Position numbers and translations under genes: made by a program
The notes under the pieces: model-generated
What the model saw: the letters and a program-made list of their open reading frames with translations, nothing else
Told to the model about the DNA's origin: nothing
Databases searched by the model: none
From: Mytilus galloprovincialis
Taxonomy: Eukaryota; Mollusca; Bivalvia; Mytilida; Mytilidae
Direction of reading: 5' to 3'
DNA: 64,000 nucleotides
Assembly (NCBI RefSeq): GCF_965363235.1
Contig: NC_134845.1
Span: 33,280,154-33,344,153 of the forward strand
In this document: positions 7,440 to 45,636 of the stretch, piece after piece
Layout of the letters: each line of letters starts with the position of its first letter
Numbering within the stretch: position 1 is the stretch's first letter

Positions 7440-7525
7440 ATATTGCAAAAAATAGACTAATTGTCATTTTGGTCTCTTGTGGAGAGTTGTCTCATTGGCA
7501 ATCATACCATATCTTCTTTTTTATA
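7440..7525 (+). repeat. Dispersed repeat family B, 3' tail only
   Basis: Carries the conserved end TTGTCTCATTGGCAATCATA plus T-rich tail, preceded by TGTCATTTTGGTCTCTTGTG. Full relatives are at 36510-36830 and 52855-53115 (plus) and 25415-25735 and 28725-29035 (minus). Only about 85 bp of the 3' end is present, as expected for a 5'-truncated retroposed copy. Confidence 0.6.
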
Positions 7526-12299: not shown

Positions 12300-12460
12300 T
12301 TTAATACGCTATACGCGCGTTTCGTCTACATAAGACTCATCGGTGACGCTCAGATCAAAATATTTATAAAGACAACAAGTACAAAATTGAAGAGCATTGA
12401 GGGCCAAAAATTCCCCAAAGTTATGCCAAATATGGCTACGGTAATCTATTCCTTGGATAA
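12300..12460 (+). repeat. Dispersed repeat family A
   Basis: Contains ACGCGCGTTTCGTCTACATA, ACTCATCGGTGACGCTCA, and the downstream block TTGAAGAGCATTGAGGGCC, in the same order as the copies at 60365 and 62038. Non-coding, diverged. Confidence 0.65.
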
Positions 12461-16300: not shown

Positions 16301-19300
16301 CTGTACAGAGTTAAACAAGTCTCAGCGCATGTATTGTACTTCAAAAGAGGACACAGTCTGTGGAGAACTGCAGTAAGTTAGTAGAAGTATAAATCATCCA
16401 GTATATTACGACAAACACTACAAACGGTTCTGGATCATATGTGTTTACTCATAATTGTATTTAAGGATATAGTTACTCAATCCTAATTTTTCTGTGTATT
16501 GTAGTATATTTGTTTCTTTTAAATGCTGTTTTTTTTCAATGCCCCAATTGATTTATTTTTACTTCAGCAAATTCAAAGCAGATTTGATGGCTCTACAAAC
16601 GTTCTCGAAGTTATGCGTTTCATAAAGTGATGAGGTTACTAAAAGACAAGTGCTTGATTGACCAGTTATTTAAAGAGAATTAACATACTTATAATAATTT
16701 ATGTACTAAAAATTGTTTAATTGTCACTTATTTGTAATATCTATTTTAAGGTTTATAGCTAAAAAAGACAAATCTAGGAGTACTGGTAAGTCTTACGTAT
16801 TAATTCAGAGGAGATTGGCATCTGACAAATAAATCTTTCGGCAAAAAAAAAATGTTTCCATTGCGAATAAAACTGAGATTAAGATATCAGAAAATCATCT
16901 TTTAACACCAATCAGAAAGAAAGATTTAAGATAAGTTTCGATTGTATATTTCAACTATAAAAAATGTAATGGCTAATTATATCGAAACAGTAAAATATTT
17001 ATAGCAAAAAACTTGGAGTAAACATAACGAAATTTCAGCTTTATGAAGTAAACATTTTATGTTTTTGATGAAAAATTACTTATTTGTTTAACTTGATTTA
17101 CGCAGGCATCTTTAAATATACAAATATTCATATGTTTTCTTGAACGTAATTATGTTTTTCAATAATTTCATTATAAATATGATTTTCAGATAAAAGTGAC
17201 GGAGATACGCATTCTGATGGATTACAATCAGGTATACCTACAATACTGTAAAACATTGTTCTTTGGTTTGCATTGCAAATTTTCATCTCAAAATAGTAGT
17301 GATTATGGTAACTTGTAATACTTACATGCAAGTAGGAGCTTTTACAAGTACTATAACTGCAAATCATCAATAGAATTTTTATCACTAGTATATAGAAATA
17401 AGAAGATGTGATAAGAGTTCCAAGGAGACAAATCTCCATCTAAGTAATTATGTTTAAAAAAAGAGTAAACAATGATAGGTCATGTGGTCTTTTTGTATGG
17501 TGATATTTTCATGTTTTGCCGATTGAATCTATTTATGAATCTTGGAATAACTTTTAGGCTAGCCAACTTCCAATTTATTATTTTACGGCTGTCATATAAT
17601 CGTTTAAAACTAATGGAATGCAATCATCCATATTATGATTTGAAGTGTTTTATATGTTTATGCTGTTTATGCGACTGTCATATTGGTGTAAGGTTTATCT
17701 AGCAATAACACCAGGTTTTATCAACCATTTTCTACATATCAAATGTATGTATAACGTTAGGAATTTGATGCGACTGTCATAAAAGTGAGAAACAAAATAA
17801 AAAATGGAGTGCCAGAAAACAAATATCACGACAACATACCGGAATGAACGGTATTTGATAAATATTTAAATAGGAGTAGACATATAAGTATATAAAACCT
17901 ACATGTAAGTGCAACTTTAACATTATCTTTACGAATATCAAGACAGAAAATTACAAATGTTTTCAAAAATATAAATTATGCTTTTTTTCTAGAAAGGAAT
18001 TGGATGTGATATATGATAGTTTCAATTTATTTTATTTTCTTTCCGTTTTTCTAGAAGCAATTGCAGGAATTGTGTTGGCATTGGTAATAATTATTATAAT
18101 TATTACTGTTGGTGTAATTAGATATAGATGGAAATCGAAAAAAGGTGAGTACTTAAAAACAATTGACAAAGTTAGGCGTTCAAGAATAGACCAGAAAGAA
18201 ACAGATAGCCGTATCAATATCGAATGGCAAGCCTCTGCACTTGTCCCGTTTCTAGAAAGAAACATGTTCGTATGTAGAAATTTTAACCCTTTGAAAGATT
18301 ATAAATATACGAGCATGTACAAAACAAATGGATGCAAGAAGTTTATAAATGCAACTTTCAGGGCTCTCAGATGATCAAATGTTGAAGTGTTTTTCTTTTC
18401 TTTTCTTCTAGCTCAGCGTAGACATGCTGTACAGGCAGAAGCTGGACAATATGGCTCTTATGACAATATGATTTGCAACTATAGTCCTCGCCGAGAGAGA
18501 GGAAAACAATGTACTTATGAGAAACTTGATGAACGAAATAATCACTGTGACTCAGAAGGTGAAGAAGATGATGAAACAAAAGCATTAATTCCACCATGTG
18601 GGCGCTTTCCGTTCAGACGAAAACGGACGAGACTTTTTACATATCCTTTCAGTGAATTAAAAGCTGATGATTCAGAATCTGATGAAAATATATGTGATAT
18701 TGAACAAGATTCAAGTTTAAGTCTTTCAAAGCGGTATTCGTATCCTGATGTGAGTTTTGCCAAAGTATCAATACAAAACAATATTCTAGATTCTGGTATA
18801 ACAGATTTTACATCACGACAAGAACCACACAAGATTCTTCTGTCTTTCAATGTTCCAGATAAAAACAGAGTGATAGAAAAAGTGCAAACATGGGATTGTA
18901 AATATAATTGGTCAGATAAGAACAATCACAGGCGTACTGTTTCAGCATATAACTTTCTAGAAACACATGCAAGTGGTCAAGAGACTGCTCTCAAGAAAGT
19001 TCGGGGATGGGAAAACAAAGGTAGTAATGGTATAATGTATACAGTTACTTTAGGTTTCGAGTCAACATTGATGGAATAAGACATTCGACATAATTTTAAA
19101 TTTAATGGGACCACATACAGGCAACAGTAGTATACCGCTGTTCCAAAGTCATAAATCGATTCAGAGAAAAATAAATTCGGATTACAAACTAAAACCAAGG
19201 GAAACACATAAACTTTAACAGGAAAACAACAAAATATGAGAAAAACTGAAGTGCAACAAAAACAAAAACGACAATGCAACATACAAAGAAAATAAAACAA

Positions 19301-20055
19301 TAAGATAACAACTGCCGTTTTCCTGACTTAGTACAGGACATTTAAAGAAAACATGAGGTGTTGATAAGCTGCATGCATGCAGACGAATGACATACAGCAG
19401 ACAAAATAGGCGTTATAATTTAGATAATAGGACCCCTGTTTTCCGATCGTATTCTTAGATACATTTCAATAAAAATCTTAATGTAATTGACCAAAGTCAT
19501 CCGTGATGAAAGTAACACGCATTTATTTTAACTGATTTACATGTTAGGTACATGCTTGACAAGTGTAAACAACCATGAAATAGAATAAATTCTCCTGAAA
19601 TAGATAGAATAAATAATATTAAAATATCAACAGGAACAATGATGGAGATTGGTTTAAATTTAAGAACATGTTTCTCTTTAAAAACACAAAAACGTACAGT
19701 TTGATCCTCTGCAAAATCATAACACCTGTGTTTACTCCAAAATATTATTTTTTTTATAGAAGAGCTGTCAACAATGTTTATGAGTAAAGTAGCCCGACAC
19801 CTTGGACCACGATACAAATTCCGTAGTTTTTCCAGAGAATTAGGATTGTCTGACACTGATCTAATGAATATTCAACAGAACTACAAGGATGATGTTGTAG
19901 AGCAAGGATACCAAGTTTTACTGAAATTAAAACAAAAAGAACTGATACAGACAGAAACTGACGTTATCAATAAAATTCAGGATTTAGGTTTTAATGAAAT
20001 AGTTGCCAAAATGAATAACCATGCAAATATTACGGTTAAAAGACTGTGTGCTTAG
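13384..20055 (+). CDS. TNF receptor superfamily member with C-terminal death domain
   Basis: Predicted death receptor of 475 aa. Seven coding exons join in one frame: 13384-13551, 16185-16372, 16751-16785, 17190-17231, 18055-18144, 18412-19020, 19760-20055. All introns are GT..AG and the total is 1428 bp. Order: signal peptide (MLIIQIVCVVCLTSFTTVAS); a first cysteine-rich block (CDPLDNVSYHKQLNECIQCEKC); a second (CIPCRPCKPGYYSDVHAYKC to TVCGE); a short acidic stalk from two tiny exons (35 and 42 bp); a membrane helix (IAGIVLALVIIIIIITVGVI) followed by RYRWKSKK. A ~200-aa cytoplasmic spacer has an acidic patch (DSEGEEDDE) and a basic patch (RRKRTRLF). The last exon encodes a death domain (KVARHLGPRYKFRSFSRELG, then LSDTDLMNIQ and a helix rich in LKLKQKEL). 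Such domains recruit adaptors for apoptosis or NF-kB signalling. The donor after 19020 (GTAGTA) is the weakest splice call. Ligand and orthologue are not assigned; the architecture recalls NGFR/EDAR-like receptors. Confidence 0.85.
13552..16184. other. Intron 1 of the death-receptor gene, nothing coding seen
   Basis: 2.6 kb, AT-rich. A short ACTT microsatellite lies near 14568-14585. The reading frame at 14718-14951 has no splice support and no recognisable domain. No other structure stands out. Confidence 0.5.
19118..19345 (+). repeat. Dispersed repeat family D, copy 2
   Basis: Starts CAGGCAACAGTAGTATACCG, then matches 3525-3620 (AAATCGATTCAGAG, AACTAAAACCAAGGGAAAC) before diverging. It lies in the last intron of the death-receptor gene. 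Non-coding. Confidence 0.65.
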
Positions 20056-21960: not shown

Positions 21961-24900
21961 ATGGCTTCCTGTCTATCTGTTTTTGTTGTTCTAACCACCC
22001 TGAATGTGTTGGTTGCATCGGATACTAAGTTAAACAGAAAAAGAGTTGTATCTACATCAGATTCTGGTAAGCATTAAATTCTTGATGGATGATAATCTAA
22101 GATAACACGTCGTTTTTTTTAAAAAAACATTCTCACCTACTGAGAGAAGAGAAAGTACAGGGAAACTCTAGTGACAAAATTGTCTTAATTTTAACAAAAT
22201 TTTAGAAATGAACAAAACGATAGTATGAGGTCAAAACTATTGGTCAATAAAATAATAAAAGCTATGTTCAAATTACATTTCTCGATTGTTGAAAGTTGTA
22301 TATAAAGAAATAATGTTTTGCAAAACTATTTATAATATCAAATATCAATATACTTTTTAGAAAGTATTTATGATTTAGTTGATACAACTTTGTATTTTTG
22401 CATTTTCATAAAATGTTCCAAATTGAGTCCTGGACATTTGTTATATTCCAGAACAACATGTTTTCCATTCATTCCGTTGGTCGATTAAGTCGGGTGTTTT
22501 GTTATATCAGGTTTAAGAGATTTTTTCCGCTTTTTAAAAATGACCTTTCATATCGTTCTTTGTTGTTGTTGATACTGTTTGATTATTTAGTCAATGCTTT
22601 TGTACACATTTATTATATCAGTTATATGTTAAGATATATGATTTAATATTTTTTTCTTTATACATTATAGGTGTTTGTTTCTATGGAGCTACCGCAGAAC
22701 GAGTTCTAAATGTCTTGGCATATAGAGATGAAAATTTATTTTTGCGTCCAGGTTTGACCACAATGATTTAACTTACATTTTGACAAAACATGATATTATT
22801 AACACACCAGTCTATTTAAAATATAGTTCTCTGATGTAGATATACTTCATACACGTATTTAAAAGGAAATTCTATTAAAACGTTTTTGATATAGTTTGCT
22901 GTATTTTAGTGTATTGTCTTTCCAACCAATATACTGTTCATTAAACTTAATGAATCAGTTTAAAGGCTACGTCGTGATACTTTGGAGTATTGATACTACA
23001 CAGGTCACTAGCACATTGTGAAAAGAATTTTTGTTACCAATGGTATTCAGACAAGTGAACTACTAAAGTGATCGGGCCATCAAAATAAACAACTTACTTT
23101 GATTGATCTATACAGACACAAAAGTACTGACAGTAACAGTTTGTAGACCTCTCCTGCATTTATTTTCGATCGTTAGAATCAATTTCCTCATCTGTGGTTT
23201 AAGCGATAGTATCGTTTCGATTTTTTTAGTAATCTTTAAGGGACGTAACACTGCTACTAACCCAAACTCAATGTACAGCGTTATTGTTCAGGTCACACCT
23301 ACTTTTCGCTACAAAAAGAGAAGCGTAGCTTCATATCACCAGTTTTGAGGAGCTTGCTGCTATAAACTGTGTGTTAAACTAATGAATGGACGTCAAGTTG
23401 GTTACCTATTCCCTATTCCCTATTCGTTACCTATTCCCTATTCCCTATTCGTTACCTATTCGTTACCTATTCCCTATTCCCTATTCGTTACCTATTCGTT
23501 ACCTATTCCCTATTCCCTATTCGTTACCTATTCGTTACCTATTCGTTACCTATTCCCTATTCCCTATTCGTTACCTATTCGTTACCTATTCCCTATTCCC
23601 TATTCGTTACCTATTCGTTACCTATTCCCTATTCCCTATTCGTTACCTATTCGTTACTTATTCCCTATTCCCTATCGTTACCTATGCGTTACTTATTCGA
23701 TTTTTAATATCCTTCCCCCTTTTTAATTAATTATTATTCTTCTTCTTCATCTTCTTCCTCTTCTTCTTCCGCCACTTTAAAAATGAACTTGTCCGCAGCA
23801 TTTCTCCAAAACTACTTGTCAGATTTACTTAGGGTTTCATAAAATGTTAGACTAATATGTCTAGGTGAGCCATCAATCGCTCATTCGTGCATTGGGGTCT
23901 ATAAAGGGGTATTTTGGGGGGCAGACAGAAGGGAGGGGTTTACTATAGAACCCTATGGGATTTTATTTTCTAAAATTTTCAAATGAATATAACTTGAAAA
24001 CTGTAAGTGATAGATACATGCAGTCTTCAGAAATGATTAAAGGACAATAAAACAAATCACATGAAATATAGGGGAGTCCCTGGGGGGTCATCCCTACCCC
24101 CTTCAATTCGAGAATATGCTTTTAACTTGTAAACGGTCCTGATCCCCACCCCTAAACCATATATATTCTTGTATGGGACAATAAAACTAATCAAATGAAA
24201 TTAAATAAAAGTTCCTGGGGGTCACCCCACCCCGTTCAATTTGAGAATGTACTATTATCTTGTAAACGGTCCAGATCCCCACCCCTAAACCATATATGTT
24301 CTTGAATAGGACGATAAAACAAATCAAATGAAATTAAATGGAAGTCCCCGGGGGTCATCCCCACCCCGTTCAATTTTAGAATGTGCTATTATCTTGTAAA
24401 CGGTCCAGATCATCACCCCAAAACCATATATATTCTTGTAGGGGACAATAAAACTAATCAAATGAAATTAAATGGAAAATCCTGGGGGTCACCCCCATCC
24501 CGTTCAATTTGAGAATGTACTATTATCTTGTAAATGGTCCAGATCCCCACCCCTAAACCATATATTTTCTTGTAAGGGACAATAAAACAAATGAAATGAA
24601 ATAAAAGGAAAGTCCCTAGGGGGTCACCCCGCCCACTCTTGTTTGAAAACTTATAAACGGTCAACATCCCCACCCCTAAACTATATATATTCTTGTAAGA
24701 GACAATAAAACTAATCAAATGAAATTAAATGGAAGTTCCTTGGGGTCACCCCCACCCCGTTCAATTTGAGAATGTACTATTATCTTGTAAATGGTCCAGA
24801 TCCCCACCCCTAAACCATATATAATCTTGTAGGGGACAATAAAACAAATAAAATGAGATAAAAGGGAAGTCCTGAGGGGGTCATCCCACCCCCTCTTGTT

Positions 24901-27900
24901 TGAAAACTTGTAAACGGTTAACATCCCCACCCCTAAACCATATATATTCTTGTAGGGGACAATAAAACAAATAAAATGAAATGTAGGTAAAGTCCCTGGG
25001 GGTCACCACCACCCCCTCCTGTTTGAATACTTGTAAATGGTGGAGATCCCCACCAGTAAGCCATATATATTCTTGTATGGGACGAAAAATCAAATCAAAT
25101 GAACATGGAACCATATGAATTGCGAGTTATGGGAGCTTTGTTTGGGAGACTTCGTAACAGCATCCTGTTACAATTACTTCTTGATGATTATACTCTTATA
25201 TCTTGTACTAGTTCTAAATTTGTTGAGGTAAAATGATCTTTTTATGACCTATTTATATGTGTTTGTGCTCAACCGATCCTTTTACTTTATGTTCGATACT
25301 CATTTGTTCCTTATTTGATTTTTATACGTTCTACCTTTTAACTGCTTTATGTCCGTATGTTTGAAGATGGATCTTGGTTCGAAGGGATGAAATCACCGTG
25401 TTAGCGCTTGCATAAAAACAAAGATGTGGTATAATTGCCAATGAGACAACAACCCACAATAGACCAAAATGACACAGAAACTATCAACTATAGGTCAATG
25501 TACGGCCTTCAACAATGAGCATAGCCCAAACCGTGCAGTCACCTATAAAAGGCCCAGATATGACAATTTCAAACAACTCAAACAACAAAACTAACGGCCA
25601 TATTTTATATACAAAAAAATAACGGAAAACAAATATGTAACACAAAAACAAACGATAACTACTTAATTTCAGGCTCTTGTCTAGAGAGAGGCACATACTA
25701 ACATAATGTGGTGGGGTTAAACATGTTAGCAGGGTGTACATCGTTTCGGAGCATGCTATTACCTTGTTTAATTCGTTCCATCACTCGCTTATAATTCGCT
25801 TATAATACGTGTATCATACGTTGCACCTTTTAAAACATGACTTTCAATTGTTTTGTTGTCTCTGGCGGTAGATTTGGGTTCTTAGAGGTGATATAACTCT
25901 ATAAGCGCATATGTACCCGTTCCAGCGCTCGGATAATACCCTGTTACTTATTCGTTCCTTATTCGCTTTTAATGCGCGGGGTAAGTATACGTTGCACCTT
26001 GAAATAAATCGTTTTTTAATTGTGTTCATGTCTCTGGTGGTAACAATGTGTTCTTAGAGAAGAAATGACCATATTAGAGCGCATGTACCCGTTCCAGCGC
26101 TCGGTTAATACCCTGTTACCTATTCGTTACCTATTCGTTACCTATTCACTTATAATACGTTTGTTGTACGTTGCACCTTTGAGAAAAGAATTTTCACTTG
26201 TGTTCATGTTTCTGGTGGTAACAATGTGTAATTAGAGATGAAATGACCCTATTAGCATGCATGTACCCGTTCCAGCGCTCGGTTAATACCCTGTTACCTA
26301 TTCGTTACCTATTCACTTATAATACATTTGTTGTACGTTGCACCTTTTAGAAAAGGATTTTCAATTCAATTTGTGTCCATGTCTCTGGTGGTAACAATGT
26401 GTAATTAGAGATGAAATGACCCTATTAGCGTGCATTTACCCGTTCCAGCGCTCGGTTATTACCCTGTTACCTATTCGTTACCTATTCACTTATAATACGT
26501 TTGTTGTACGTTGCACCTTTTAGAAAAGGATTTTCAATTGTGTCCATGTCTCTGGTGGTAACAATGTGTTCTTAGAGATGAAATGACACTATTAGCGTGC
26601 ATGTACCCGTTCCAGCGCTCGGTTAATACCCTGTTACCTATTCGTTACCTATTCGTTACCTATTCACTTATAATACGTTTGTTGTACGTTGCACCTTTTA
26701 GAAAAGGATTTTCAATTGTGTTCATGTCTCTGGTGGTAACAATGTGTTCTTAGAGATGAAATGACCCTATAAGCGCATATGTACCCGTTCCAGCGCTCGG
26801 TTAATATCTTGTTACCTATTCGTTACCTATTCGTTACTTATTCGCTTTAAATACGTTTGTTGTACGTTGCACCTTTTAGAAAAGGATTTTCAATTGTGTC
26901 CATGTCTCTGATGGTAACAATGTGTTCTTAGAGATTAAATGACGCTATTAGCGCGCATGTACCCGTTCCAGCGCTCGGTTATTACCCTGTTACCTATTCA
27001 TTACCTATTCACTTATAATACGTTTGTTGTACGTTGCACCTTTTAGAAAAGGCTTTTCAATTGTGTCCATGTCTCTGGTGGTAACAATGTGTTCTAAGAG
27101 ATGAAATGACCCTATTAGCGCATATGTACCCGTTCCAGCGCTCGGTTAATACCCTGTTACCTATTCGTTACCTATTCGTTACTTATTCGCTTTAAATACG
27201 TTTGTTGTACGTTGCACCTTTTAGAAACGGATTTTCACTTGTGTTCATGTCTCTGGTGGTAACAATGTGTAATAAGAGATGAAATGACACTATTAGCGCG
27301 CATGTACCCGTTCCAGCGCTCGGTTAATACCCTGTTACCTATTCGTTACCTATTCGTTACCTATTCACTTATAATACGTTTGTTGTACGTTGCACCTTTT
27401 AGAAAAGGATTTTCAATTGTGTTCATGTCTCTGGTGGTACATGTAACAATGTGTTCTTAGAGATGAAATGACCCTATAAGCGCATATGTACCCGTTCCAG
27501 CGCTCGGTTAATATCTTGTTACCTATTCGTTACCTATTCGTTACTTATTCGCTTTAAATACGTTTGTTGTACTTTGCACCTTTTAGAAAAGGATTTTCAC
27601 TTGTGTTCATGTCTCTGGTGGTAACAATGTGTAATTAGAGATGAAATGACCCTATTAGCGTGCATGTACCCGCTCCAGCGCTCGGTTAATACCCTGTTAC
27701 CTATTCGTTACCTTTTCGTTACCTATTCACTTATATATAGAGAAAACAACACAAGCGACATAAGTATCTACTTTATACATTAAATTTAACTTAACAATGG
27801 TATTTGTACGTATGAAGCGTCAACTTCATGTTATTCATACCTTTCAAGCGTCATTGTAACATGCATTGTACGTATGAAAGTGAAAATTATTAATTTGGAT

Positions 27901-30900
27901 TGTCTTTCTTTTCCCAAAATAATTTTTAGACCGTTAAAAAGGTGAAAACTTATGTATTACCAACTTAATCATTGACTGCATACGTAAGATGGTTGGTTTT
28001 TTTCAGATATATATCTTTTTTTGACAGTAAGCAAAAAATTTATCAGTATCTTTTAATTTAAGTTGACATATGTTATACATGTACATTTGTTTCCAAATTT
28101 ATTATTAAAGTTTTCGGTGAAGACGAAATTTGTATTTTTACAGTTGTTCCGTTAATGTGTAATGTCATTTGTCAACCGATCAACATTTATTTAGATTACT
28201 AAAGGATCTTTGTAGAGTTCCCTGTCATCAATTCCAATCTTTTAAAATGCGTTGCAGCACATACTACATGAAATCGAACAAGCTTAGAAGTTTTTGCAAG
28301 GAAATAAATCAAGATTTTATAATTATAAGGAGTCAAAACAGATAAAAGAAAATGTAGCTGAGGGTTGCAAATTTTTTTTTTTTTTGCTTTCTGAAAGTTT
28401 ATTCTCTTTCTTGCAGAAAGAGCAAGAGCCATTACAACATATGCAAAGTATTTGCAGAAATTTCAGTCAAACACTGGTACACGATTTCATATTACATTCA
28501 TTTTTTATAGTCTAAGAGTAAAGCCATTTTCAATTAATATTTTATAGTGCGTCTTTTCAATTGTAATGTTATACTGCTGTATCAGTTTTAGGGTGAAGGT
28601 TTGCGCTTGTTTAAACGTCCAAACACGCAGCATATATTATATGCACCTGTCCTAAGTCAGGAACAGTGCTTGTCGTTTGTTGGTATGTTTGATATATGTT
28701 TCTCGTTTAAAATAATAATTAAAAAAAAGATGAGGTGTGATTTCCAATGAGACAACTCTTCACAGGAGACCAAATGACACAGAAATTAATAAAAATGGTC
28801 ACAGTAGAGCCCATATTGAGCAAAGCCCATACCGTATAGTCAGCTATAGAAGGCCCCGAAATGACAAATGCAAAACGTTTTACAATTCAAACGAAAAAAC
28901 TAACGTCCTAATTAATGTACAAAAAAAATTAACGAGAAACAAATATGTAACACGGCAAAACGGCAACCACAGAATTACAGGCTCTAGACTTGAGACAGGC
29001 ACATATGTACGTAATGTGGCGGAATCCCACAAAATATATTTGCTCTTCTCTTTATTTCATAGCAACGTTATGTTACATATTTATATATGGCTTTTAAAGC
29101 CAAGACGCAAAGATATGCTGATTTAGTTTAAGTTTGGTTAAGTTTAATTGGTAATTAAACTAAATTGATTTGTGTGGAACTTGTGCCTAATTAGCTATAA
29201 AATATTTTGTTGATTGATATAGATCGTTAATCATCTAGTGTTAACTAGATATATAAGTCCCTGACCTGTGAAGTGGAGCTGTAGGAGACTTTATTATATT
29301 TGTTTGTCTGTCTGTCTTGTAGTCGTTTTTGTCTGTCTGTCTGGTGGTCTTGTTTGTCTTGACTGTCTAGTGGTCTCCTCTGTATATCTGTCTGGTGGTC
29401 TTGTCTGTCTGTCTGTTTATCTGGTGTTCTTGTCTGTCTGTCTGTTTATCTGGTATGTCTGTCTGTCTGGTGGTCTTGTCTGTCTGTCTGTATTGTCGTC
29501 TTTTCTGTCTGTCTGGTGGTCTTTTCTGTCTATCTGGTGTTCTGGGCTGGCTGTCTGTCTGTCTTGTTGTCTTGTCTGGCTTGTTGTCTGTCTGATTGTC
29601 TTGTCTGTCTGTGCCTGTTTGGTAGTCTTGTTTGAGTGTCTGTCTGGTGGTCTTTTTTGTGTGTCTGTCTTGTGGTCTTGTTTGTGTGACTGTCTGGGGG
29701 TCTTGTCTGTTGGTCTGTCTGTCTGATGGTCTTGTCGGTGTGGTGGTCTTATCTGTCTGTATATCTGTTTTTCTGGTGGTCTGATCGGTCTGTTTATCTG
29801 TCTTTCTGGTGGTCTATCTGGTAGTATCGTCTGGCTGGCAAATGTCCATGATAAAATCCAGATCAAGTTCGAATTTGTTTGGGTCTTATGAGTTTGACCG
29901 AGTAATTCTCTGATATGCTGGATACTGTCCACGCTAGTCTGTGTCCACACCTGTTTCATTCGATATTTCGTAAACGTATTTGCAAGAAATTCTTCCCAAA
30001 AAATAACTTCGTTATTTGTATGTTCAACCTTTATACTGTGTATACTCGTTGAAAGAGATGTAATATGGCAAGGAGATAGCAACTCAGATGTTCCGTTATT
30101 TTTCTTTCTAATGTTAACATCATAGAAGGAACGAACCATCTTTTTATGTGTTTAAATATTTGGTGCGGAGGGGCATTTTATTTCGTACAGACAATTTGAT
30201 GAAGTATATATATGAAGCCAAAAAAGAATTAAACTTTTAAAAATAATCCTTTGTTTAACCACAAAAGATGAATCGTCGATATCTAACAGTATTAACAATC
30301 AGATAGCTAACTATCAGGGGAAATGATGTTGATTTTAAGCAACTATTGGTTACCGTATGTTTAGCTTTAGTCCAGACCCAGGGCTCAATTTCAGATTGTC
30401 TTAATTATGTACTGACAACAATAAACAAACAAGAACTATCTTGATACAAGATATACGACACATTTATATGTTGGCGTGAAGTTTTGTATCAACCATAAAC
30501 ATTTATCTTTTGATTTTTTATAATTTCACACATATATTGATTCTGACTTGACTATAAGGTATATCTGAAGGTTTTTTTCCGGAGAAAAAAAACCGCCGTG
30601 AAAATACTAGTTATGATAACTGTACGACAAACACAATTTTAAATTAGAGATACAACCTATTTTGGTTTGAAAATCGTGGATTGACGGTCAACAAAGTGAG
30701 ATGATATTTGTATTTTGAGATTTTTTATTTCAATTATAATTGTTTAATGATAATGTGCTTTGACTTAATAATTAACCCTTGGCATTTTAAACAAAGTACA
30801 ACAGATGTATAGCAGTGTCTCCAGTTATTGAATCCTAAACTGGATATCAGCTCTTTATACCTTCCTTTGCTTCCATTAATTACGATTATTTTTCTTAAGG

Positions 30901-33900
30901 TTTAATGGTCAATAATTTTAAGTTACAAGAATCACTATAAATACTAAAAAATCGAAACTGCTTTTTCAAGTTGAAGACGTGCATGCACGCTTAAAGATCG
31001 ATTAATTATGCACTGACAAAATCTCTATTTTGGAAAGGGAAAGGCAAGGGAATTAAAACGAGAAAGCAAACATGTGCGAACCAAACACAAATATTATAAA
31101 CAGCAAGAAAGTCAAGCACTGAGTAGCATATGACTGAGCATAAATTATGGCGGTGGACAAACATGTTTACCGACTCAAAATGCTCTCCTAAATTTAGAAA
31201 GTGATGCAACAGCAGTAAGTAAAAATCAATTTAAAAAGACAGTTGCAACAATTCACACTAAACATAACTCGTAAGAAATAGTCTAAGGTAGGACATAGAT
31301 TAACGATCTGAGATATTAAAGCCCGGGATGACGAAGTATAAAAAAAATGAAAGACGAAAACATTCCAAAAAGACCACACCAGACCATAAAGCATAAAACA
31401 GTCCATTAATGGCATTGGGCTGTATCTGGTTTTTGATCGGTTTGTTTCTTATAAACAAAAAGACTTACACGTACAGTATCAAGATTGTTTTAATTGTCCA
31501 ATGTATTCATGATTCCATAACTGAAAATTAACGTTTTCCCTATGTACAACAATTTTGTCTTAATTCAAATATCCTAATTAGATTAAGAAAAATATGAAGA
31601 TAATGGCGAAATTATAGCTAAATGCATTTTGATATGGTTTTTTGTTTGTTTGGAAAAAGGGAGACAATTCAATCTCAAATATAGTCTTAATTGTGATTTC
31701 TTACGTATACTTTATGTATGACGTTAGTAAAGTCAGATATCGAGAGTTCTCTATAATACGTTTGTTGTACGTTGCACCTTTTAGAAAAGGATTTTCAATT
31801 GTGTCCATGTCTCTGATGGTAACAATGTGTTCTTAGAGATTAAATGACGCTATTAGCGCGCATGTACCCGTTCCAGCGCTCGGTTAATACCCTGTTACCT
31901 ATTCGTTATTTATTCGATTTTAATACGTTTGTTGTACGTTTCACCTTTTAGAAAAGGATTTTCAATTAAGTCCATGTCTCTGGTGGTAACAATGTCTTTT
32001 TAGAGATGAAATGACTCTATTAGCGTGCATGTACCCGTTCCAGCGCTCGGTTAATACCCTGTTACCTATTCGTTACCTATTCACTTATAATACGTTTGTT
32101 GTACGTTGCACCTTTCAGAAAAGAATTTTCAATTGTTTTCATGTCTCCGGTGGTAATAATGTGTTCTTATAGATAAAATACCCCTATTAGCGCGTGTGTA
32201 CCCGTTCCAGCGCTCGGATAATACCCGGTTACTTATTCGTTACTTATTTGCTTAAATGCGCAGGGTATATATACGTTGCACCTTGAAATAAATTGTTTTT
32301 TAATTGTGTTCATGTCTCTGGTGGTAACAATGTGTTCTTAGAGATGAAACGACCCTATTAGCGCGCATGTACCCGTTCCAGCGCTCTGTTAATACCCTGT
32401 TACCTATTCGTTACCTATTCGTTACTTTTTCGCTTATAATACGTTTGTTGTACGTTGCACCTTTTAGAAAAAGATTTTCATTTGTGTTCATGTCTCTGGT
32501 GGTAACAATGTGTTCTTAGAGGCAGCACTCGCACCCGAAAAGTGGAAAGGGGTAAATATAAGTTGCAAAACTTGTTTCCCAATCCACTATAAATAAATAT
32601 ATGTAAATTAAAAAATAAAACGTGTGTTATGCGTTTGCTCTTGAAAAAAAGAAATATGTTTGTGTCTTTGGTGGTAACTGTCGGTTTTTAGAGGTGAAAT
32701 AACCCTAATAGAACATATGTACCCGTTTCAGCGCTTGACTGATACCCTGTAACTTATTCGTTCCTTATTCGCTTTAAATACGCGTGGTATACGTTGCACC
32801 TTGAAATAAATCGATTATCGATTGCTTTCACGTCTCTGGTGGTAATTATGTGTTCTGTGATCTGAGTTGAAAAAACCCTATTAGCGCATATGTACCCATT
32901 TCACCGCTCAGTGATACCCTGTTACTTATTCGTTCCTTATTCGCTTTTAAAACGTGTGTAATGCGTTGCACTTTAAAAAGAAATATTTTTGTGTCTCTGG
33001 TGGTAACTGTCGGTTCTTAGAGGAGAAATAACCTTAATCGAACATATGTACCCGTTTCAGCGCTCGACTAATACCCTGTTACTTATTCGTTCCTTATTCG
33101 CTTTAAATACGCGTGCTATGCGTTGCACCTTGAAATAAGAAGTAACAAATAGGTAACAAGGTATAAGCCGAACGCTGGAACGGGTACATACGCGCTAAAA
33201 GGGTTATTTCATCTCTAAAAACACATTGTTACCACCAGAGACATGAACACAAACGAAAATCTTTTTCTAAAAGGTGCAACGTACAACAAACGTATTATAA
33301 GCAAATAAGTAACGAATAGGTCACGAATAGGTAATAGGGTATCAACCGAGCGCTGGAACGGGTACATGTGCGCTAATAGGGTCGTTTCATCTCTAAGAAC
33401 ACATTGTTACCACCAGAGACATGAACACAATTAAAAAACAATTTATATCAAGGTGCAACGTATATAAACCCTGCGCATTAAAAGCGAATAAGTAACGAAT
33501 AAGTAACCGGGTATTATCCGAGCGCTGGAACGGGTACACACGCGCTAATAGGGGTATTTTATCTATAAGAACACATTAATACCACCGGAGACATGAAAAC
33601 AATTGAAAATCCTTTTCTGAAAGGTTCAACGTACAACAAACGTATTATAAGTGAATAGGTAACGAATAGGTAACAGGGTATTAACCGAGCGCTGGAACGG
33701 GTACATGCACGCTAATAGGGTCATTTCATCTCTAATTACACATTGTTACCACCAGAGACATGAACACAAGTAAAAATCCTTTTCTAAAAGGTGCAACGTA
33801 CAACAAACGTATTATAAGTGAATAGGTAACGAATAGGTAACAGGGTATTAACCGAGCGCTGGAACGGGTACATGCGCGCTAATAGGGTCGTTTCATCTCT

Positions 33901-36900
33901 AAGAACACATTGTTACCACCAGAGACATGAACACAAGTGAAAATCCTTTTCTAAAAGGTGCAAAGTACAACAAACGTATTTAAAGCGACTAAGTAACGAA
34001 TAGGTAACGAATAGGTAACAGAATATTAACCGAGCGCTGGAACGAGTACATATGCGCTAATAGGGTCATTTCATCTCTATGAACACATTGTTACCACCAG
34101 AGACATGAACACAATTGAAAATTCTTTTCTAAAAGGTGCAAAGTACAACAAACGTATTATAAGTGAATAGGTAACGAATAGGTAACGAATAGGTAACAGG
34201 GTATTAACCGAGCGGTGGAACGGGTACATGCGCGCTAATAAGGGCATTTCATCTCTAAGAACACATTGTTACCACCAGAGACATGGACACAAATTGAATT
34301 GAAAATCCTTTTCTAAAAGGTGCAACGTATATCAAACGTATTATAAGTGAATAGGTAACGAATAGGTAACGAATAGGTAACAGGGTATTAACCGAGCGGT
34401 GGAACGGGTACATGCGCGCTAATAGGGTCATTTCATCTCTAAGAACACATTGTTACCACCAGAGACATGGACACAATTGAAAATCCTTTTCTAAAAGGTG
34501 CAACGTACAGCAAACGTATTATAAGTGAATAGGTAACGAATAGGTAACGAATAGGTAACAAGGTATTAACCGAGCGCTGGAACGGGTACATGCACGCTAA
34601 TAGGGTCATTTCATCTCTAATTACACATTGTTACCACCAGAGTCATGAACACAAGTAAAAATCCTTTTCTAAAAAGTGCAACGTACAACAAACGTATATA
34701 AAGCGAATAAGTAACGAATAGGTAACGAATAGATAACAGGGTATTAACCGAGCGCTGGAACGGGTACATATGCGCTAATAGGGTCATTTCATCTCTAAGA
34801 ACACATTGTTACCACCAGAGACATGAACACAATTAAAAAACGATTTATTTCAAGGTGCAACGTATACTTACCCCGCGCATTAAAAGCGAATAAGGAACGA
34901 ATAAGTAACAGGGTATTATCCGAGCGCTGGAACGGGTACATGCACGCTAATAGGGTCATTTCATCTCTAATTACACATTGTTACCACCAGAGACATGAAC
35001 ACAAGTGAAAATCTTTTTCTAAAAGGTGCAACGTACAACAAACGTATTTAAAGCGAATAAGTAACGAATAGGTAACGAATAGGTAACAGGGTATTAACCG
35101 AGCGCTGGAACGGGTACATGCACTCTAATAGGGTCATTTCGTCTCTAAGAACACATTGTTACCACCAGAGACATGAACACAATTAAAAAACGATTTATTT
35201 CAAGGTGTAACGTATACTTACCCCGCGCATTAAAAGCGAATAAGAAACGAATAAGTAACAGGGTATTATCCGAGCGCTGGAACGGGTACATGCACGCTTA
35301 TAGGGTTATTTCATCTCTAATTACACATTGTTACCTCCAGAGACATGAACACAAGTGGAAATCCTTTTCTAAAAGGTGCAACGTACAACAAATGTATTAT
35401 AAGTGAATAGGTAACGAATAGGTAACAGGGTATTAACCGAGCGCTGGAACGGGTACATGCGCGCTAATAAGGTCATTTCATCTCTAAAAACACATTGTTA
35501 CCACCAGAGACATGAACACAATTGAAAATCCTTTTCCAAAAGGTGCAACGTACAACAAATGTATTATAAGTGAATAGGTAACGAATAGGTAACGAATAGG
35601 TAACAGGGTATTAACCGAGCGCTGGAACGGGTACATGCGCGCTAATATAGTCATTTCATCTCTAAGAACACATTGTTACCACCAGAGACATGGACACAAT
35701 TGAAAATCCTTTTCTATAAGGTGCAACGTACAACAAACGTATTATAAGTGAAAAGGTAACGAATAGGTAACAGGGTAATAGCCGAGCGCTGGAACGGGTA
35801 AATGCACGCTAATATATCATTTCATCTCTAATTAGACATTGTTACCACCAGAGACATGAACACAAGTGAAAGTCCTTTTCTAAAAGGTGCAACGTACAAC
35901 AAATGTATTATAAGTGAATAGGTAACGAATAGGTAACGAATAGGTAACAGGGTATTAACCGAGCGCTGGAACGGGTACATGCATGCTAATAGGGTCATTT
36001 CATCTCTAATTACACATTGTTACCACCAGAGACATGAACACAAGTGAAAATCCTTTTCTCAAAGGTGCAACGTACAACAAACGTATTATAAGTGAATAGG
36101 TAACGAATAGGTAACGAATAGGTAACAGGGTATTAACCGAGCGCTGGAACGGGTACATGCGCTCTAATAGGGTCATTTCTTCTCTAAGAACACATTGTTA
36201 CCACCAGAGACATGCACACAATTAAAAAACGATTTATTTCAAGGTGCAACGTATACTTACCCCGCGCATTAAAAGCGAATAAGGAACGAATAAGTAACAG
36301 GGTATTATCCGAGCGCTGGAACGGGTACATATGCGCTTATAGAGTTATATCACCTCTAAGAACCCAAATCTACCGCCAGAGACAACAAAACAATTGAAAA
36401 TCATGTTTTAAAAGGTGCAACGTATGATACACGTATTATAAGCGAATTATAAGCGAGTGATGGAACGAATTAAACAAGGTAATAGCATGCTCCGAAACGA
36501 TGTACACCCTGCTAACATGTTTAACCCCACCACATTATGTTAGTATGTGCCTCTCCCTAGACAAGAGCCTGAAATTAAGTAGTTATCGTTTGTTTTTGTG
36601 TTACATATTTGTTTTCCGTTATTTTTTTGTATATAAAATACGGCCGTTAGTTTTGTTGTTTGAGTTGTTTGAAATTGTAATATCTGGGCCTTTTATAGGT
36701 GACTGCACGGTTTGGGCTATGCTCATTGTTGAAGGCCGTACATTGACCTATAGTTGATAGTTTCTGTGTCATTTTGGTCTATTGTGGGTTGTTGTCTCAT
36801 TGGCAATTATACCACATCTTTTTTTTTTTTATGCAAGCGCTAACACGGTGATTTCATCCCTTCGAACCAAGATCCATCTTCAAACATACGGACATAAAGC

Positions 36901-39900
36901 AGTTAAAAGGTAGAACGTATAAAAATCAAATAAGGAACAAATGAGTATCGAACATAAAGTAAAAGGATCGGTTGAGCACAAACACATATAAATAGGTCAT
37001 AAAAAGATCATTTTACCTCAACAAATTTAGAACTAGTACCAGATATAAGAGTATAATCAACAAGAAGTAATTGTAACAGGATGCTGTTACGAAGTCTCCC
37101 AAACAAAGCTCCCATAACTCGCAATTCATATGGTTCCATGTTCATTTGATTTGATTTTTCGTCCCATACAAGAATATATATGGCTTACTGGTGGGGATCT
37201 CCACCATTTACAAGTATTCAAACAGGAGGGGGTGGTGGTGACCCCCAGGGACTTTACCTACATTTCATTTTATTTGTTTTATTGTCCCCTACAAGAATAT
37301 ATATGGTTTAGGGGTGGGGATGTTAACCGTTTACAAGTTTTCAAACAAGAGGGGGTGGGATGACCCCCTCAGGACTTCCCTTTTATCTCATTTTATTTGT
37401 TTTATTGTCCCCTACAAGATTATATATGGTTTAGGGGTGGGGATCTGGACCATTTACAAGATAATAGTACATTCTCAAATTGAACGGGGTAGGGGTGACC
37501 CCAAGGAACTTCCATTTAATTTCATTTGATTAGTTTTATTGTCTCTTACAAGAATATATATAGTTTAGGGGTGGGGATGTTGACCGTTTACAAGTTTTCA
37601 AACAAGAGGGGGTGGGCTGACCCCCTAGGGACTTTCCTTTTATTTCATTTCATTTGTTTTATTGTCCCTTACAAGAATATATATGGATTAGGGGTGGGGA
37701 TCTGGACCATTTACAAGATAATAGTACATTCTCAAATTGAACGGGGTGGGGGTGACCCCCAGGAACTTCCATTTAATTTCATTTGATTAGTTTTATTGTC
37801 CCTTACAAGAATATATATAGTTTCGGCGTGGGGATGTTGACCGTTTATAAGTTTTCAAACAAGAAGGGGGTGGGGTGACCCCCTAGGGACTTTCCTTTTA
37901 TTTCATTTCATTTGTTTTATTGTCCCCTACAAGAAAATATATGGTTTAGGGGTGGGGATCTGGACCATTTACAAGATAATAGTACATTCTCAAATTGAAC
38001 GGGACGGGGGTGACCCCCAGGATTTTCCATTTAATTTCATTTGATTAGTTTTATTGTCCCCTACAAGAATATATATGGTTTTGAGGTGATGATCTGGACC
38101 GTTTACAAGATAATAGCACATTCTAAAATTGAACGGGGTGGGGATGACCCCCGGGGACTTCCATTTAATTTCATTTGATTTGTTTTATCGTCCTATTCAA
38201 GAACATATATGGTTTAGGGGTGGGGATCTGGACCGTTTACAAGATAATAGTACATTCTCAAATTGAACGGGGTGGGGTGACCCCCAGGAACTTTTATTTA
38301 ATTTCATTTGATTAGTTTTATTGTCCCATACAAGAATATATATGGTTTAGGGGTGGGGATCAGGACCGTTTACAAGTTAAAAGCATATTCTCGAATTGAA
38401 GGGGGTAGGGATGACCCCCCAGGGACTCCCCTATATTTCATGTGATTTGTTTTATTGTCCTTTAATCATTTCTGAAGACTGCATGTATCTATCACTTACA
38501 GTTTTCAAGTTATATTCATTTGAAAATTTTAGAAAATAAAATCCCATAGGGTTCTATAGTAAACCCCTCCCTTCTGTCTGCCCCCCAAAATACCCCTTTA
38601 TAGACCCCAATGCACAAATGAGCGATTGATGGCTCACCTAGACATATTAGTCTAACATTTTATGAAACCCTAAGTAAATCTGACAAGTAGTTTTGGAGAA
38701 ATGCTGCGGACAAGTTCATTTTTAAAGTGGCGGAAGAAGAAGAGGAAGAAGAGGAAGAAGAAGAATAACTAGAATTGCCATTGCAAGCAATAGCGGATGT
38801 CACCCTTCCCCCTATTGCCACTAAGCGGCAGCCATTTCAAACTTGTTTAACAGTAAATGCACAAATATGCATGGCTATTCATCTTTTTGTAAATGTTCAG
38901 TATATTCAGAGCATTTTAAAGTATTTCACATTTATACCGTTTCCATGGCAACGGCAGCCATTTTGAAAATTTCAAAGTCAAAAGTCTCATCTTAACCAAT
39001 AATATCAAATTTCATTAAGTTAAAACCATTTTGAGAATTTTTGACATTTTTGCAGTTTCCATGGCAACCATGGCCATTTTGGAAATTCCAACTTCAAAAG
39101 TCATATCTAGACTTGACAGTTAACAATCATATCAAGTTTCATCAATTTTGAAGCATTCTGAAATTTTTGCTCCTGTATCCATGGTAACATAGTAGTTCCA
39201 ATGATTATCAAAATCATTCAAAACCTGTATATAGTGGACAACTATATTGTATAAAAATTTGATGATTTTAAGTTCAAGCATACCAAAGTTATACACCAAA
39301 CCCGGAAGTTTTTGGAGCATTTTGACCTTTTTGCATTGTTTCCATGGAAATGGCAGACATTTTGGAAATTCCAACGCCAAATTCCACATCTACCAAAGTT
39401 GCTCATCGTTATGCTAAAGTTTCAAAAAAATTGGAGCATTTCCATATTTTTGAAATTTTTGGTGTAGTTTCCATGGCAACATAGCAGTTCCAAAATGTGC
39501 CAAAATCATCCAAAACCTGTATATAGTGGGCACCTACATTGTATTAAAATCTAAAGATTTTAAGCTTAAGCATTCTCAAATAATTCAAGGAACTCCAAAA
39601 TTTTATTTTTTCACCATTTTTCCGTTTCCATGGTGATGGCAGCCATTTTTTAGTTCCAATTTTGCACAGACTCTGGGGAGTCAGGGTTCCTTGTTATAGT
39701 GCACCATCATTCGGATTGGTACTTTTGGCTCTGAGAAAGCGGGCGGACAAAATTAGGTGGAAGTATAATAATAATAATACAGAAAAAGAAACAGAGGAAA
39801 AGCAATATGTCACCCGACATTGTCGATCGGATGACATAATAATTAATTAAAAAGGGTGAAGGATATTAAAAATCGAATAAGTAACGCATAGGTAACGATA

Positions 39901-42900
39901 GGGAATAGGGAATAAGTAACGAATACTAGGTAACGAATAGGGAATAGGGAATAGGTAACGAATAGGTAACGAATAGGGAATAGGGAATAGGTAACGAATA
40001 GGTAACGAATAGGGAATAGGGAATAGGTAACGAATAGGTAACGAATAGGGAATAGGGAATAGGGAATAGGTAACGAATAGGTAACGAATAGGGAATAGGG
40101 AATAGGTAACGAATAGGGAATAGGGAATAGGGAATAGGTAACGAATAGGGAATAGGGAATAGGTAACCAACTTGACGTCCATAACTAATGACCCAATGTC
40201 AAATCTTAGCGTCTCCACAACTTCGCTTTCAACCATTGATATTCATAGAATTATATAAGAAGGTAAGATACCGTCTGTCATCAAATTGTGTTGTCTTTGT
40301 AATTTAAATGGAATGATCAATATAAAAGATAAAAGACAAAAGCTATTTTTATTAATTTGTGTAAATAGTTAGGACTGTAATAAGTATATCGGGGCGATTA
40401 TATTCTTTAATAACTTTTTGTTGACGGTAAATCTAAATTAGTCTTTGAAATATTGGACATTTTATGTAGAGAAATATATGTGGTAGACGTTCCCTTCTGT
40501 TCATGATGTTTCTTTACCGTATTCTCTCCATATATCTTTTTTTTCTAAACTTATTAGCGTACTTGCCTTGCGAGAAGGTCGTGTGTTCGCTCGGCTCCGA
40601 CCAACTAAATGATATGCATAAGTATTATAACTTATCTTTATAAACAGTACGTAAACCGAAAGACTGTGCAGACTTGGACCCTAAACGTGACCCTAGTGGA
40701 GTGTATAGAATATATCCATATGCCGGAAGTGGATTCAAGGTTTATTGTGATATGAAGACCGATGGTGGGCGCTGGACAGTAAGTTATATAAATATTGCTT
40801 AAATATCTACTCAATTTACAAAAAAAACAACTTTATATGGGTAAAATTATGAACTGTTAGATTCGGTCTGTGGTGTTTACAACAAAAATAATACAATACT
40901 TATATAAGCGAAGGAAACACCAAAGTACGCTACCGATAAATACGTTCATATCTGGGATTAAAAACAAAATCTATGTTCTCGCTAAGAGTGTTGTGTTCGT
41001 ACCGGCCGACAAAGCAGCCAACAATGTTGTCTTAACTGGACATATTTAAACACGTATGTCCTTAAAATGAAATTATACAATCACCTACATACAATACCTT
41101 ACACTCCACTTTCATGTCAATACCACATCTTAACTTATGGCCTTCAGATTTTTAGATGTTTAAGGAAAATTACGTGCTTTTGATGGTCCTTTTATTCGGT
41201 CAACAAGTTTTGACTTTTTCACTCTTTATACTACACTTTTAAACAATCTTATCAAACAAAAAAGTTCTATTTAATGTCATGGTCATCTGCAAAATCTGAT
41301 TATAAACTTGTTTGTTGCAAGTCATAAAAAGGTTTGTTTTTACCTAATATACTAGTATATGCTATATAGACTTACTTAATGTGTGTGATGAGATCATTAA
41401 AACCGTAAATTTTCTTCTTGTTGAATTTATGTACGTTTCGGCTATAATGTGAATTGACATGTTGTTGGTTTTCCTATGATCACACATTTTTCTCCTTTAA
41501 TATCAGACTTTTACCTTTCCTGTTATGAATTATAAACTCAGTACAAACCGGAATAAATTCTAACTAATAACTTCAACAACACTTACCAACTAATAACTTC
41601 AACAACACTTACCGTTATTTTGGGGATATTGTTTTTTGTAAGATACTCAAGAAATCTCAAAACATACTGCCGAAATTTACATAAAAGAGCTTACTTCATA
41701 TACATCAAATATTACATGTAACAGCAACAACGTTAATATTCTAAACTAAGAAAAGTTTTACACGAGAAAATCTACACAAAATTTTACGAGAATTTTCCTT
41801 CTTTGGACGGTGTAACGGTGGTTTTTTATATCCTAAGACGTTTGCTATGCCCGTATCTGTAGTGATATCTTTTGGCATTTTCAATGAATAAGCGTTATCT
41901 ATGTAATTATGTCAACTTTGATGTAGGTGATTTGCACATTTACGGTACTACAATCTCTCAAATACCTATATATTGCCATTGCATAAGGTCATATTTTCTC
42001 TAACTGTTAGAGAGGTCTTTATCCAAAATCCATTGGATGTTGGATGTGTACTGAATGATATTTTAGTCGTCGATACAAGATTTTTCTGCTGTAGCTCAGT
42101 GGCTGGCGTTGGTTTACGTCTGTTCTTTTCGTTTTTTGTAAATTATTTGGTTTTAATCTAGGCCGTTAGTATTCTCAATTAAATTATTTCATGTCGGGGC
42201 CTTTTATAGCCTACAATACGGTATTGGTTTTGCATAATTGTTGAAGGCCGTATGGTTACCTAAGGTGCTTCCATCCACTATATTTGACCTGAAGTGGATA
42301 GTTGTCTCACTGGTAATCATACCACATCTTCTTGAATTGTATAGAGGACAATTTGAATTGATTATCATCCTTCATTTTCAAAATTGGCGATCTCACACAC
42401 TTATTTCTAATATTCACACTTGGCAATCATAAATGAATAAAATATATATAACGATAATTGGAAGTGTGGATAGGGTATATCATTTGCACAAGAAAACTGG
42501 TTTTACCCAAACAGTTTATATAGCCTATCCAATGGATGGAGGATCTGTCGCATAGGTGTCACTTAATAAATCGACGTATTTATCAAAATTATTATTTCTG
42601 TGACTTAATCATACGATCCTTTATGAAAGATATTGAGCTTATATTATATGCAGTCAATTCAATCTTCATGCCTAATATATCATGTTCTAGATTCAACTGG
42701 CGAGGAAAGGTAACACTAGGCAATTGAAAGCTGAGTTTTTTAGTTCAGTCTAGGGGGCCGAGTGTTCTAAATCGAAGGACATAGTGCATGCGGTTTTGTT
42801 TCGGTTTCCCTATAGCATGAGTTCCAATCCTGGCAATGGGAAGAACAAAAATTTGCTAAAAATTGTTACATAAGATATTCAATAATCGGCACAAAGTCAC

Positions 42901-45419: not shown

Positions 45420-45636
45420 TGTATCGAGAGGACATATTAAAGATAAATCTATCCACTAACAATAATTTTATAATCTATAAGTTAAAACTTATATATATAT
45501 CAAGACATCCGGCACCCAATGTATAAATGTTTATTATATTATCTATGATTTAATATTCCAATGCAATTTTTGGATATACCACATCCTTATTTAAAAAAAA
45601 ATCATAGTGCTTACAATATCCAAAAACAAACACTTT

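What the first reader, a model, noticed from the sequence alone, without database searches (positions are those of the whole stretch)
23377..40191. A ~16.8-kb foldback transposon with 9-bp target duplication inside a lectin intron
The sequence shows perfect inverted termini (ATGGACGTCAAGTTGG), a perfect 9-bp flanking duplication (AACTAATGA) and arms made of three nested classes of tandem repeat. Drosophila FB elements share this plan and the 9-bp duplication; foldback elements are usually a few kb. Near identity of the arms suggests recent arrival or strong arm-to-arm conversion. I know of no described bivalve element with this exact layout, but cannot search.
Basis: partly seen in the sequence, partly recalled or inferred. 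Interest (0 to 1): 0.88.

Follow-up and report, generated by a model that had tools for sequence, protein, structure and literature searches.

The report
Giant foldback transposon in a mussel
A long, nearly mirror-symmetrical stretch inside a lectin-type gene of a mussel is one of about a hundred mapped copies of an unusually large jumping DNA element, built like known "foldback" elements of flies and nematodes but much bigger and with no enzyme gene of its own yet found.

Summary
Window 23386-40182 has perfect 16-bp inverted ends and a 9-bp target duplication. It is one copy of a real transposon family in a 1.385-Gb genome, very probably Mytilus galloprovincialis. The 16-mer occurs 361 times, a reversed control 9 times. 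The 338 mapped ends give 94 converging neighbour pairs; about 1 is expected at random. Of 45 pairs whose flanks I read, 28 have a perfect 9-bp duplication; 0 of 1028 mismatched pairings do. Most of the 28 copies read share one layout: tip minisatellite, spacers, a 134-bp array in 12, 178-bp array, off-centre core, mirror image. Corrections: the apparent 4-kb loop (27736-31751) is a later insertion in the left arm; the palindrome centre is near 33134; the element proper is about 12.8 kb; arms are 93-99% alike. No transposase of the family was found: an OTU/DUF7869 protein inside one copy belongs to a nested, different transposon, and no listed MULE domain lies in a mapped pair. A new, very large, apparently non-autonomous member of the foldback kind; Mutator membership likely, unproven.

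The parts
23377..23385 (+). left target-site duplication AACTAATGA
40183..40191 (+). right target-site duplication AACTAATGA
23386..23401 (+). left terminus ATGGACGTCAAGTTGG; in 56 ends of 28 copies bases 1-31 are the same save position 21 (T in 31 of 56) and position 22 (T in 55 of 56); the first 16 are fixed by the way copies were chosen
40167..40182 (-). right terminus
23402..23699 (+). tip minisatellite (T), 11-bp GTTACCTATTC and variants, left
39875..40166 (-). tip minisatellite, right (tip 96.5% identical to left, no mismatch, 11 gap positions)
23700..24040 (+). outer spacer (U), left
38462..38768 (-). outer spacer (U), right, main piece; a 38-bp remainder lies at 39836-39873
38769..39870 (-). 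about 1.1 kb present in the right arm only; related sequence in L018, L025, L029 and a short piece in L021
24041..25103 (+). 134/257-bp tandem array (M), left; found in 12 of 28 copies
37141..38461 (-). 134/257-bp tandem array (M), right
25104..25793 (+). inner spacer (V), left, including a dispersed repeat at 25417-25675
36448..37140 (-). inner spacer (V), right; 98.7% identical to left
25794..27735 (+). 178/350-bp array (R), left arm, outer part
27736..31751 (.). nested insertion of about 4.0 kb within the left-arm array (same array orientation on both sides, TATA repeated at the joints); no Pfam match in six frames; holds a (TGTC)n tract at 29300-29820
31752..33133 (+). 178-bp array (R), left arm, inner part, ending in diverged central units (about 32640-33139)
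33134..33141 (.). point where array orientation switches: palindrome centre
33142..36447 (-). 178/350-bp array (R), right arm
22005..22071 (+). host gene: exon coding a signal-peptide-like start (by eye), aligned with the paralogue at 47171-47237
22653..22719 (+). host gene: putative second exon, aligned with the paralogue at 48287-48353
40644..40787 (+). host gene: putative third exon, aligned with the paralogue at 48633-48776; Fibrinogen_C matches in the frames read from 40501 to 45423

Best explanation
The stretch is an apparently non-autonomous cut-and-paste DNA transposon of foldback build. A transposase supplied from elsewhere is inferred to recognise the constant tip (about 31 bp) and perhaps the repeated 11-bp tip motif that fills the end minisatellite and recurs through the 178-bp arrays of the arms; it brings the two ends together and inserts the element with a 9-bp staggered cut (the 9-bp duplication is shown; the rest is inferred). 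The long arms grew by gain and loss of tandem units and are partly homogenised with each other. The copy in this window landed in an intron of a fibrinogen-related lectin gene and was later hit by a separate 4-kb insertion. By analogy with Tetris and Tm1, and from the 9-bp duplication, the missing enzyme is most likely of the Mutator (MULE) superfamily.
For: Constant ends, 361 against 9 control; 94 converging neighbour pairs within 45 kb against 14 neighbours of other orientation and a random mean of 1.0; perfect 9-bp duplications in 28 of 45 pairs read and 7-8 of 9 bases in 8 more, 0 of 1028 cross-pairings perfect and 3 with 7 or more; among the first 28 no abutting perfect duplication of 8 or 10 bp; related unoccupied sites, best for L011 (83.8% over 185 columns at window 12271-12454) and L027 (93% over 274 columns in L043 and L047); a shared layout; 11-bp motif 41+41 exact copies, always in arm orientation; inner spacers of one copy more alike (98.65%, 24 pairs) than those of different copies (97.28%, 1152 pairs), partner the best match for 18 of 48 arms. 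A paralogue of the host gene has 279 bp between the exons that here are 17.9 kb apart.
Against: No transposase of the family was found. Among open frames of 160 aa or more in 28 copies the only enzyme-like ones are in L033 and L043, both in blocks shared with no other of the 28 copies and lying within an arm array; a gene split by introns would have been missed, and Pfam was run only on the middle of this copy and of L033. No listed MULE match lies inside any of the 94 pairs. 9 of 45 pairs lack a recognisable duplication, two of them with mirror-image flanks. Binding of the 11-bp motif by any protein is untested. 30 of 48 arms have another copy's arm as best match, so conversion between arms is weak, old or mixed with exchange among copies.
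Confidence: 0.9

Rival explanations
1. The family is moved by an OTU-plus-DUF7869 protein, a copy of which lies inside L033; its 97% relative on C9 has an open frame of 1067 aa.
For: It sits inside a copy with a perfect 9-bp duplication; the C9 relative has no stop in that frame.
Against: In L033 it lies inside the right-arm array, with the same array orientation on both sides, its own inverted ends (CGAGGGTT...) and a repeated ACAA at the joints. The match between L050 (C9) and L033 stops at the right-hand joint (the left one lies outside L050). The three closest other copies (C9, two on C11) have no foldback end within 45 kb among 338 of 361 mapped ends.
Confidence: 0.03
2. The palindrome is an assembly artefact or a recent inverted duplication.
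For: Two other large 'pairs' (33.3 kb on C5, 24.0 kb on C12) have outer flanks that are reverse complements of each other.
Against: Here the flanks carry a direct 9-bp repeat and are not mirror images; arms differ in sequence and in length; other copies share ends and layout.
Confidence: 0.02
3. The mover is a transposase of another superfamily that also makes about 9-bp duplications, or an undescribed one.
For: Foldback build is known from more than one superfamily (Galileo is placed with P elements; PMC3688188, passages). No listed MULE match lies in a mapped pair.
Against: Foldback-like elements with 8-10-bp duplications have been assigned to Mutator by their authors (Tetris; Tm1). The genome holds at least 140 MULE matches (150 of 324 candidates scored), one of them 15.4 kb inside a lone right end on C13 (about 0.5 such expected by chance, my arithmetic).
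Confidence: 0.25
4. It is a Helentron-type element with satellite-like repeats, as described in oysters and mussels.
For: Bivalve elements compared with Helentrons carry tandem repeats, MgE of this mussel among them (PMC7492417, passages).
Against: Helitrons are rolling-circle elements and, as I recall, leave no such duplication; here inverted ends and 9-bp duplications are clear.
Confidence: 0.01

Closest known systems
Tetris (Drosophila virilis; PMC4079207: abstract and three sections read)
   Same: Long inverted arms with about 220-bp tandem units that share 37 bp with the outer domain; 8-10-bp duplications; no transposase in the copies found; short derivative (DAIBAM)
   Different: Arms up to 1.7 kb against about 5.7 and 7.0 kb here; three structurally complete copies reported; no 11-bp tip minisatellite mentioned in what I read
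Tm1 (root-knot nematodes; PMC3169594: abstract and passages)
   Same: Ends made of short (about 14-bp) tandem repeats of variable number, 8-10-bp and mostly 9-bp duplications (45 of 53 there), MITE-like short forms, arms on average 93% alike
   Different: Amplified copies of about 0.9 and 2.3 kb; a Phantom/MULE-type transposase copy is known; asymmetric 7-bp outermost motifs
Drosophila FB/NOF (recalled; no paper on it read)
   Same: Arms of several tandem repeat classes, 9-bp duplication
   Different: Recalled as a few kb; NOF-type protein in some copies, none found here; no sequence compared
Galileo (Drosophila; PMC3688188 and PMC3573991: passages)
   Same: Long internally repeated arms; repeats hold extra transposase binding sites
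   Different: P-superfamily enzyme; arms about 0.3-1.3 kb
MgE / pearl-type elements of bivalves (PMC7492417: passages)
   Same: Bivalve mobile elements with tandem repeats
   Different: Said there to carry a short central repeat array; arms and duplications not checked, sequences not compared

Membership tests
Foldback elements (structural group) | Long inverted arms with internal tandem repeats | tested here: met
Foldback elements (structural group) | Several constant-ended copies with target duplications | tested here: met
   28 of 45 pairs read are perfect, 8 more match at 7-8 of 9; 94 pairs mapped
Mutator (MULE) superfamily | Target duplication of about 9 bp | tested here: met
   not unique to Mutator
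Mutator (MULE) superfamily | MULE/DDE transposase in autonomous copies with the same ends | tested here: inconclusive
   None of 140 listed MULE matches lies in any of 94 pairs, but 23 of 361 ends were not listed, 174 of 324 MULE candidates were not scored, and ends with changes in the 16-mer were not sought
Drosophila FB/NOF | NOF-type protein or sequence likeness of ends | not tested
   No FB or NOF sequence was compared
Helitron/Helentron | No target duplication of this kind (recalled) | tested here: not met
   9-bp duplications
OTU+DUF7869 transposon | Its ends and protein form part of the element | tested here: not met
   Nested with its own ends in L033

The most novel reading that the evidence does not exclude
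A very large foldback family, with a pair of ends 39 kb apart still carrying a perfect 9-bp duplication, whose arms are arrays of dozens of reiterated recognition sites that let a transposase with a short binding site find and pair ends many kilobases apart; the enzyme may belong to a superfamily not yet described.
Probability: 0.12. Interest if true: 0.75.

Novelty: new member of a known kind. Interest (0 to 1): 0.5.

Why it matters
The family puts many very long, nearly palindromic, satellite-bearing elements into a bivalve genome, one of them inside a lectin-type gene. It offers many natural copies with which to test whether reiterated binding sites in foldback arms drive transposition, how arms grow and convert, and whether such elements seed satellite DNA or structural variation in mussels. 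My literature searches listed, by title and start of abstract, no described bivalve foldback element; subscription papers are mostly not in that library.

Tried and rejected
Protein inside L033 (OTU 23.0 bits, just under its cut-off of 23.3; DUF7869 30.9 bits, over its cut-off of 26): looked like the autonomous partner until the joints showed a nested element. Long open frame in L043 (780 aa, reads like a reverse transcriptase by eye; not searched) lies in a block shared with no other of the 28 copies, within the right-arm array. Other open frames of 160 aa or more, in L009, L013, L047 and the window copy, read through tip repeat or the (TGTC)n tract. A central stretch shared by about eight copies is a tandem repeat of about 140 bp; no frame over about 130 aa was listed, and it was not run through Pfam. 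Pfam on the six frames of 27740-31752: nothing. Rfam and tRNA on the window: nothing. PDB search of the DUF7869 frame and NCBIfam search of three frames of L034: nothing. Middle pieces of three 23-kb pairs: L053 is array, L052 ends in the dispersed repeat, L051 had no match to the eight reference pieces; none had an open frame of 100 aa. MULE map: no listed match inside a pair; nearest leads C13:45383668 (15.4 kb inside a lone right end), C10:13562978 (38.6 kb inside a lone right end), C5:31465469 (4.7 kb outside a pair). Not reached: genome count of the 178-bp unit, copies of the 4-kb nested insertion, empty site of this copy by genome search (never sent).
Full report
OBSERVATION. Tandem Repeats Finder gives an 11-bp family at both tips, a 134/257-bp family and a 178/350-bp family in both arms. 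A reverse-strand self-comparison aligns 24041-27735 with 38194-34520 at 93.5% over 3722 columns; pieces compared one by one give 96.5% (tips), 95.4% (outer spacer plus 134-bp array) and 98.7% (inner spacer).

FAMILY. The window lies on contig C8 of a 1.385-Gb genome. A 353-aa frame from contig C1 of that genome is 100% identical to a named Mytilus galloprovincialis protein whose contig is 133,122,103 bases long; C1 here is 133,120,143. The species is very probably that mussel. The 16-base end occurs 361 times (179 forward, 182 reverse) against 9 for the reversed control. I mapped 338 of the 361 ends (23 ends preceded by T, after C12:1083353, were not listed). Within 45 kb, 94 neighbours converge and 14 do not (8, 4 and 2 of the other kinds); random placement gives 1.0 converging pair on average, at most 5 in 200 trials. 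Spacings run from 350 bp to 39.4 kb, median 11.6 kb; 33 are under 10 kb. The 94 include two mirror structures described below. 150 of the 338 mapped ends are unpaired; I did not find out why (a partner with a changed 16-mer, a truncated copy, or an unlisted end are possible).

TARGET DUPLICATION. I read both flanks of 45 of the 94 pairs. The first 28 are the window copy and 27 of the 33 pairs in the first listing: 20 are perfect over 9 bases, 4 match at 8, 1 at 7, and 3 (L014, L018, L037) at 2, 5 and 1. The next 17 are the other six of those 33 and eleven from C5, C10 and C12: 8 are perfect, 3 match at 7-8, and 6 at 2-6; two of these six, on C5 and C12, have flanks that are reverse complements of each other and look like mirror duplications rather than elements. 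Pairing each left flank with the wrong right flank gave 0 perfect matches in 1028 trials, and 3 with 7 or more. No abutting 8- or 10-base duplication was perfect in the first 28. The 20 perfect duplications have no strong motif; A is commonest at the middle position (13 of 20), and they are about as AT-rich (70%) as the flanks (68.5%).

UNOCCUPIED SITES. Joined flanks of the 28 copies were compared with the window and the fetched sequence. Unbroken relatives across the insertion point were found for L011 (window 12271-12454, 83.8%) and L027 (L043 and L047 at 93%, many others near 83%). L016 lies in a tandem repeat with relatives near 70%; L015, L020, L033 and L039 lie in locally repeated flanks with an unbroken neighbour. 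Short or weak hits for L009, L025 and L029 are not counted; the other 18 copies, the window's among them, had none. The window copy's direct genome search was not sent. Indirectly, the paralogue 3' of the host gene has 279 bp between the exons that are 17.9 kb apart here.

ANATOMY. Painting the 28 copies with pieces of this one shows a common layout: tip minisatellite, outer spacer, 134-bp array (12 of 28 copies), inner spacer, 178-bp array, a block of diverged central units often lying to one side of the switch of orientation, then the mirror image. Some small copies depart from it: L012 (350 bp) is tip only, L009 and L016 lack most of one arm. The switch in this copy is at about 33134-33141. 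The 4.0-kb block at 27736-31751 has the array in the same orientation on both sides and TATA repeated at its joints, and no match among the other copies apart from a dispersed repeat inside it, so it is a later insertion. The element proper is thus about 12.8 kb, with arms of about 5.7 and 7.0 kb. The first 31 bases are nearly invariant in 56 ends. The 11-base tip motif occurs 41 times in each orientation, always following the arm, and not once exactly in the rest of the window.

CODING CAPACITY. Open frames of 160 aa or more occur in 6 of 28 copies; in four they read through tip repeats or the (TGTC)n tract. L033 holds an OTU match (just under its cut-off) and a DUF7869 match (over it), and the best relative elsewhere, on C9, has an open frame of 1067 aa. 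This first looked like the autonomous partner. The joints show instead a nested element with its own inverted ends and a repeated ACAA within the right-arm array; the match to the C9 copy ends at the right-hand joint, and the three closest other copies have no mapped foldback end within 45 kb. The genome holds at least 140 MULE matches (150 of 324 candidates scored), none inside a mapped pair. One lies 15.4 kb inside a lone right end on C13; its left end, if it follows a T, would be among the unlisted ones. About 0.5 such cases are expected by chance (my arithmetic), so it is a lead only. Genes split by introns would escape the frame search.

MECHANISM. Shown: discrete ends, 9-bp duplication, dispersal, a shared layout, variable unit numbers. 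Inferred: movement in trans by a transposase that binds the tip and perhaps the reiterated motif. In Galileo, extra binding sites for the transposase were found in the arm repeats and were proposed to add specificity and to offset length (PMC3688188, passages). In Tetris the outer domain and the 220-bp units share 37 bp, and a similar role was proposed (PMC4079207, section read). Here the shared motif is plainer. Inner spacers of one copy are more alike (98.65%) than those of different copies (97.28%), but only 18 of 48 arms have their own partner as best match; for the 341-bp outer spacer the figures are 97.89% and 96.66%, and 6 of 20. Exchange among copies or incomplete conversion must be added.

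HOST GENE. Exons of a fibrinogen-type domain lie downstream of the element (Fibrinogen_C), and three putative exons on both sides of it match those of a paralogue. The element therefore sits in an intron that would be about 1.1 kb without it. No transcript was seen. To the left is a TNFR/death-domain-like gene; both of its Pfam matches are under their cut-offs.

NOVELTY. The build is that of foldback elements; Tm1 and Tetris are the nearest described among what I read. What is unusual is size: arms of 5-7 kb here, and end pairs 20.3, 22.6, 27.6 and 39.4 kb apart with perfect duplications; the insides of those long ones were not read save 1.6 kb of the 22.6-kb one, and nested insertions may account for much of their length. 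Arabidopsis FARE elements are recalled as long too; that paper is not held. Searches for foldback elements in bivalves or Mytilus listed none by title and abstract.

Noticed in passing
L033/L034 (C1:16.73 Mb), L050 (C9:41503917-41504966), C11:62055614: A separate transposon with inverted ends CGAGGGTT..AGTGCC and an apparent 4-bp duplication (ACAA) in L033, and a protein with OTU-like and DUF7869 matches; the C9 copy has an open frame of 1067 aa without stops. 167 related proteins were found, among them named ones from molluscs and insects.
   Followed up: partly
C5:24767109-24800397 and C12:11073-35055: Two pairs of foldback ends whose outer flanks are reverse complements of each other: large mirror duplications or assembly palindromes.
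   Followed up: no
window 27736-31751: 4.0-kb insertion in the left arm with a (TGTC)n tract, repeated TATA at the joints, no Pfam match; kind unknown.
   Followed up: partly
window 25417-25675, 28723-28983, 36566-36824, 52855-53113, 42089-42340: A dispersed repeat of about 260 bp, present both inside the arms and elsewhere; copy L027 is inserted in one.
   Followed up: partly
window 16245-20055: A TNFR-like gene: cysteine-rich repeat and death-domain matches, both under the Pfam cut-off, and a membrane helix by eye.
   Followed up: partly
L043, element coordinates 7187-11204: Long minus-strand frames that read by eye like a non-LTR reverse transcriptase, in a block of the right arm shared with no other of the 28 copies.
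   Followed up: no
L012 (C1:101170104-101170453): A 350-bp copy made of ends and tip repeat, with a perfect 9-bp duplication: a MITE-like form.
   Followed up: partly
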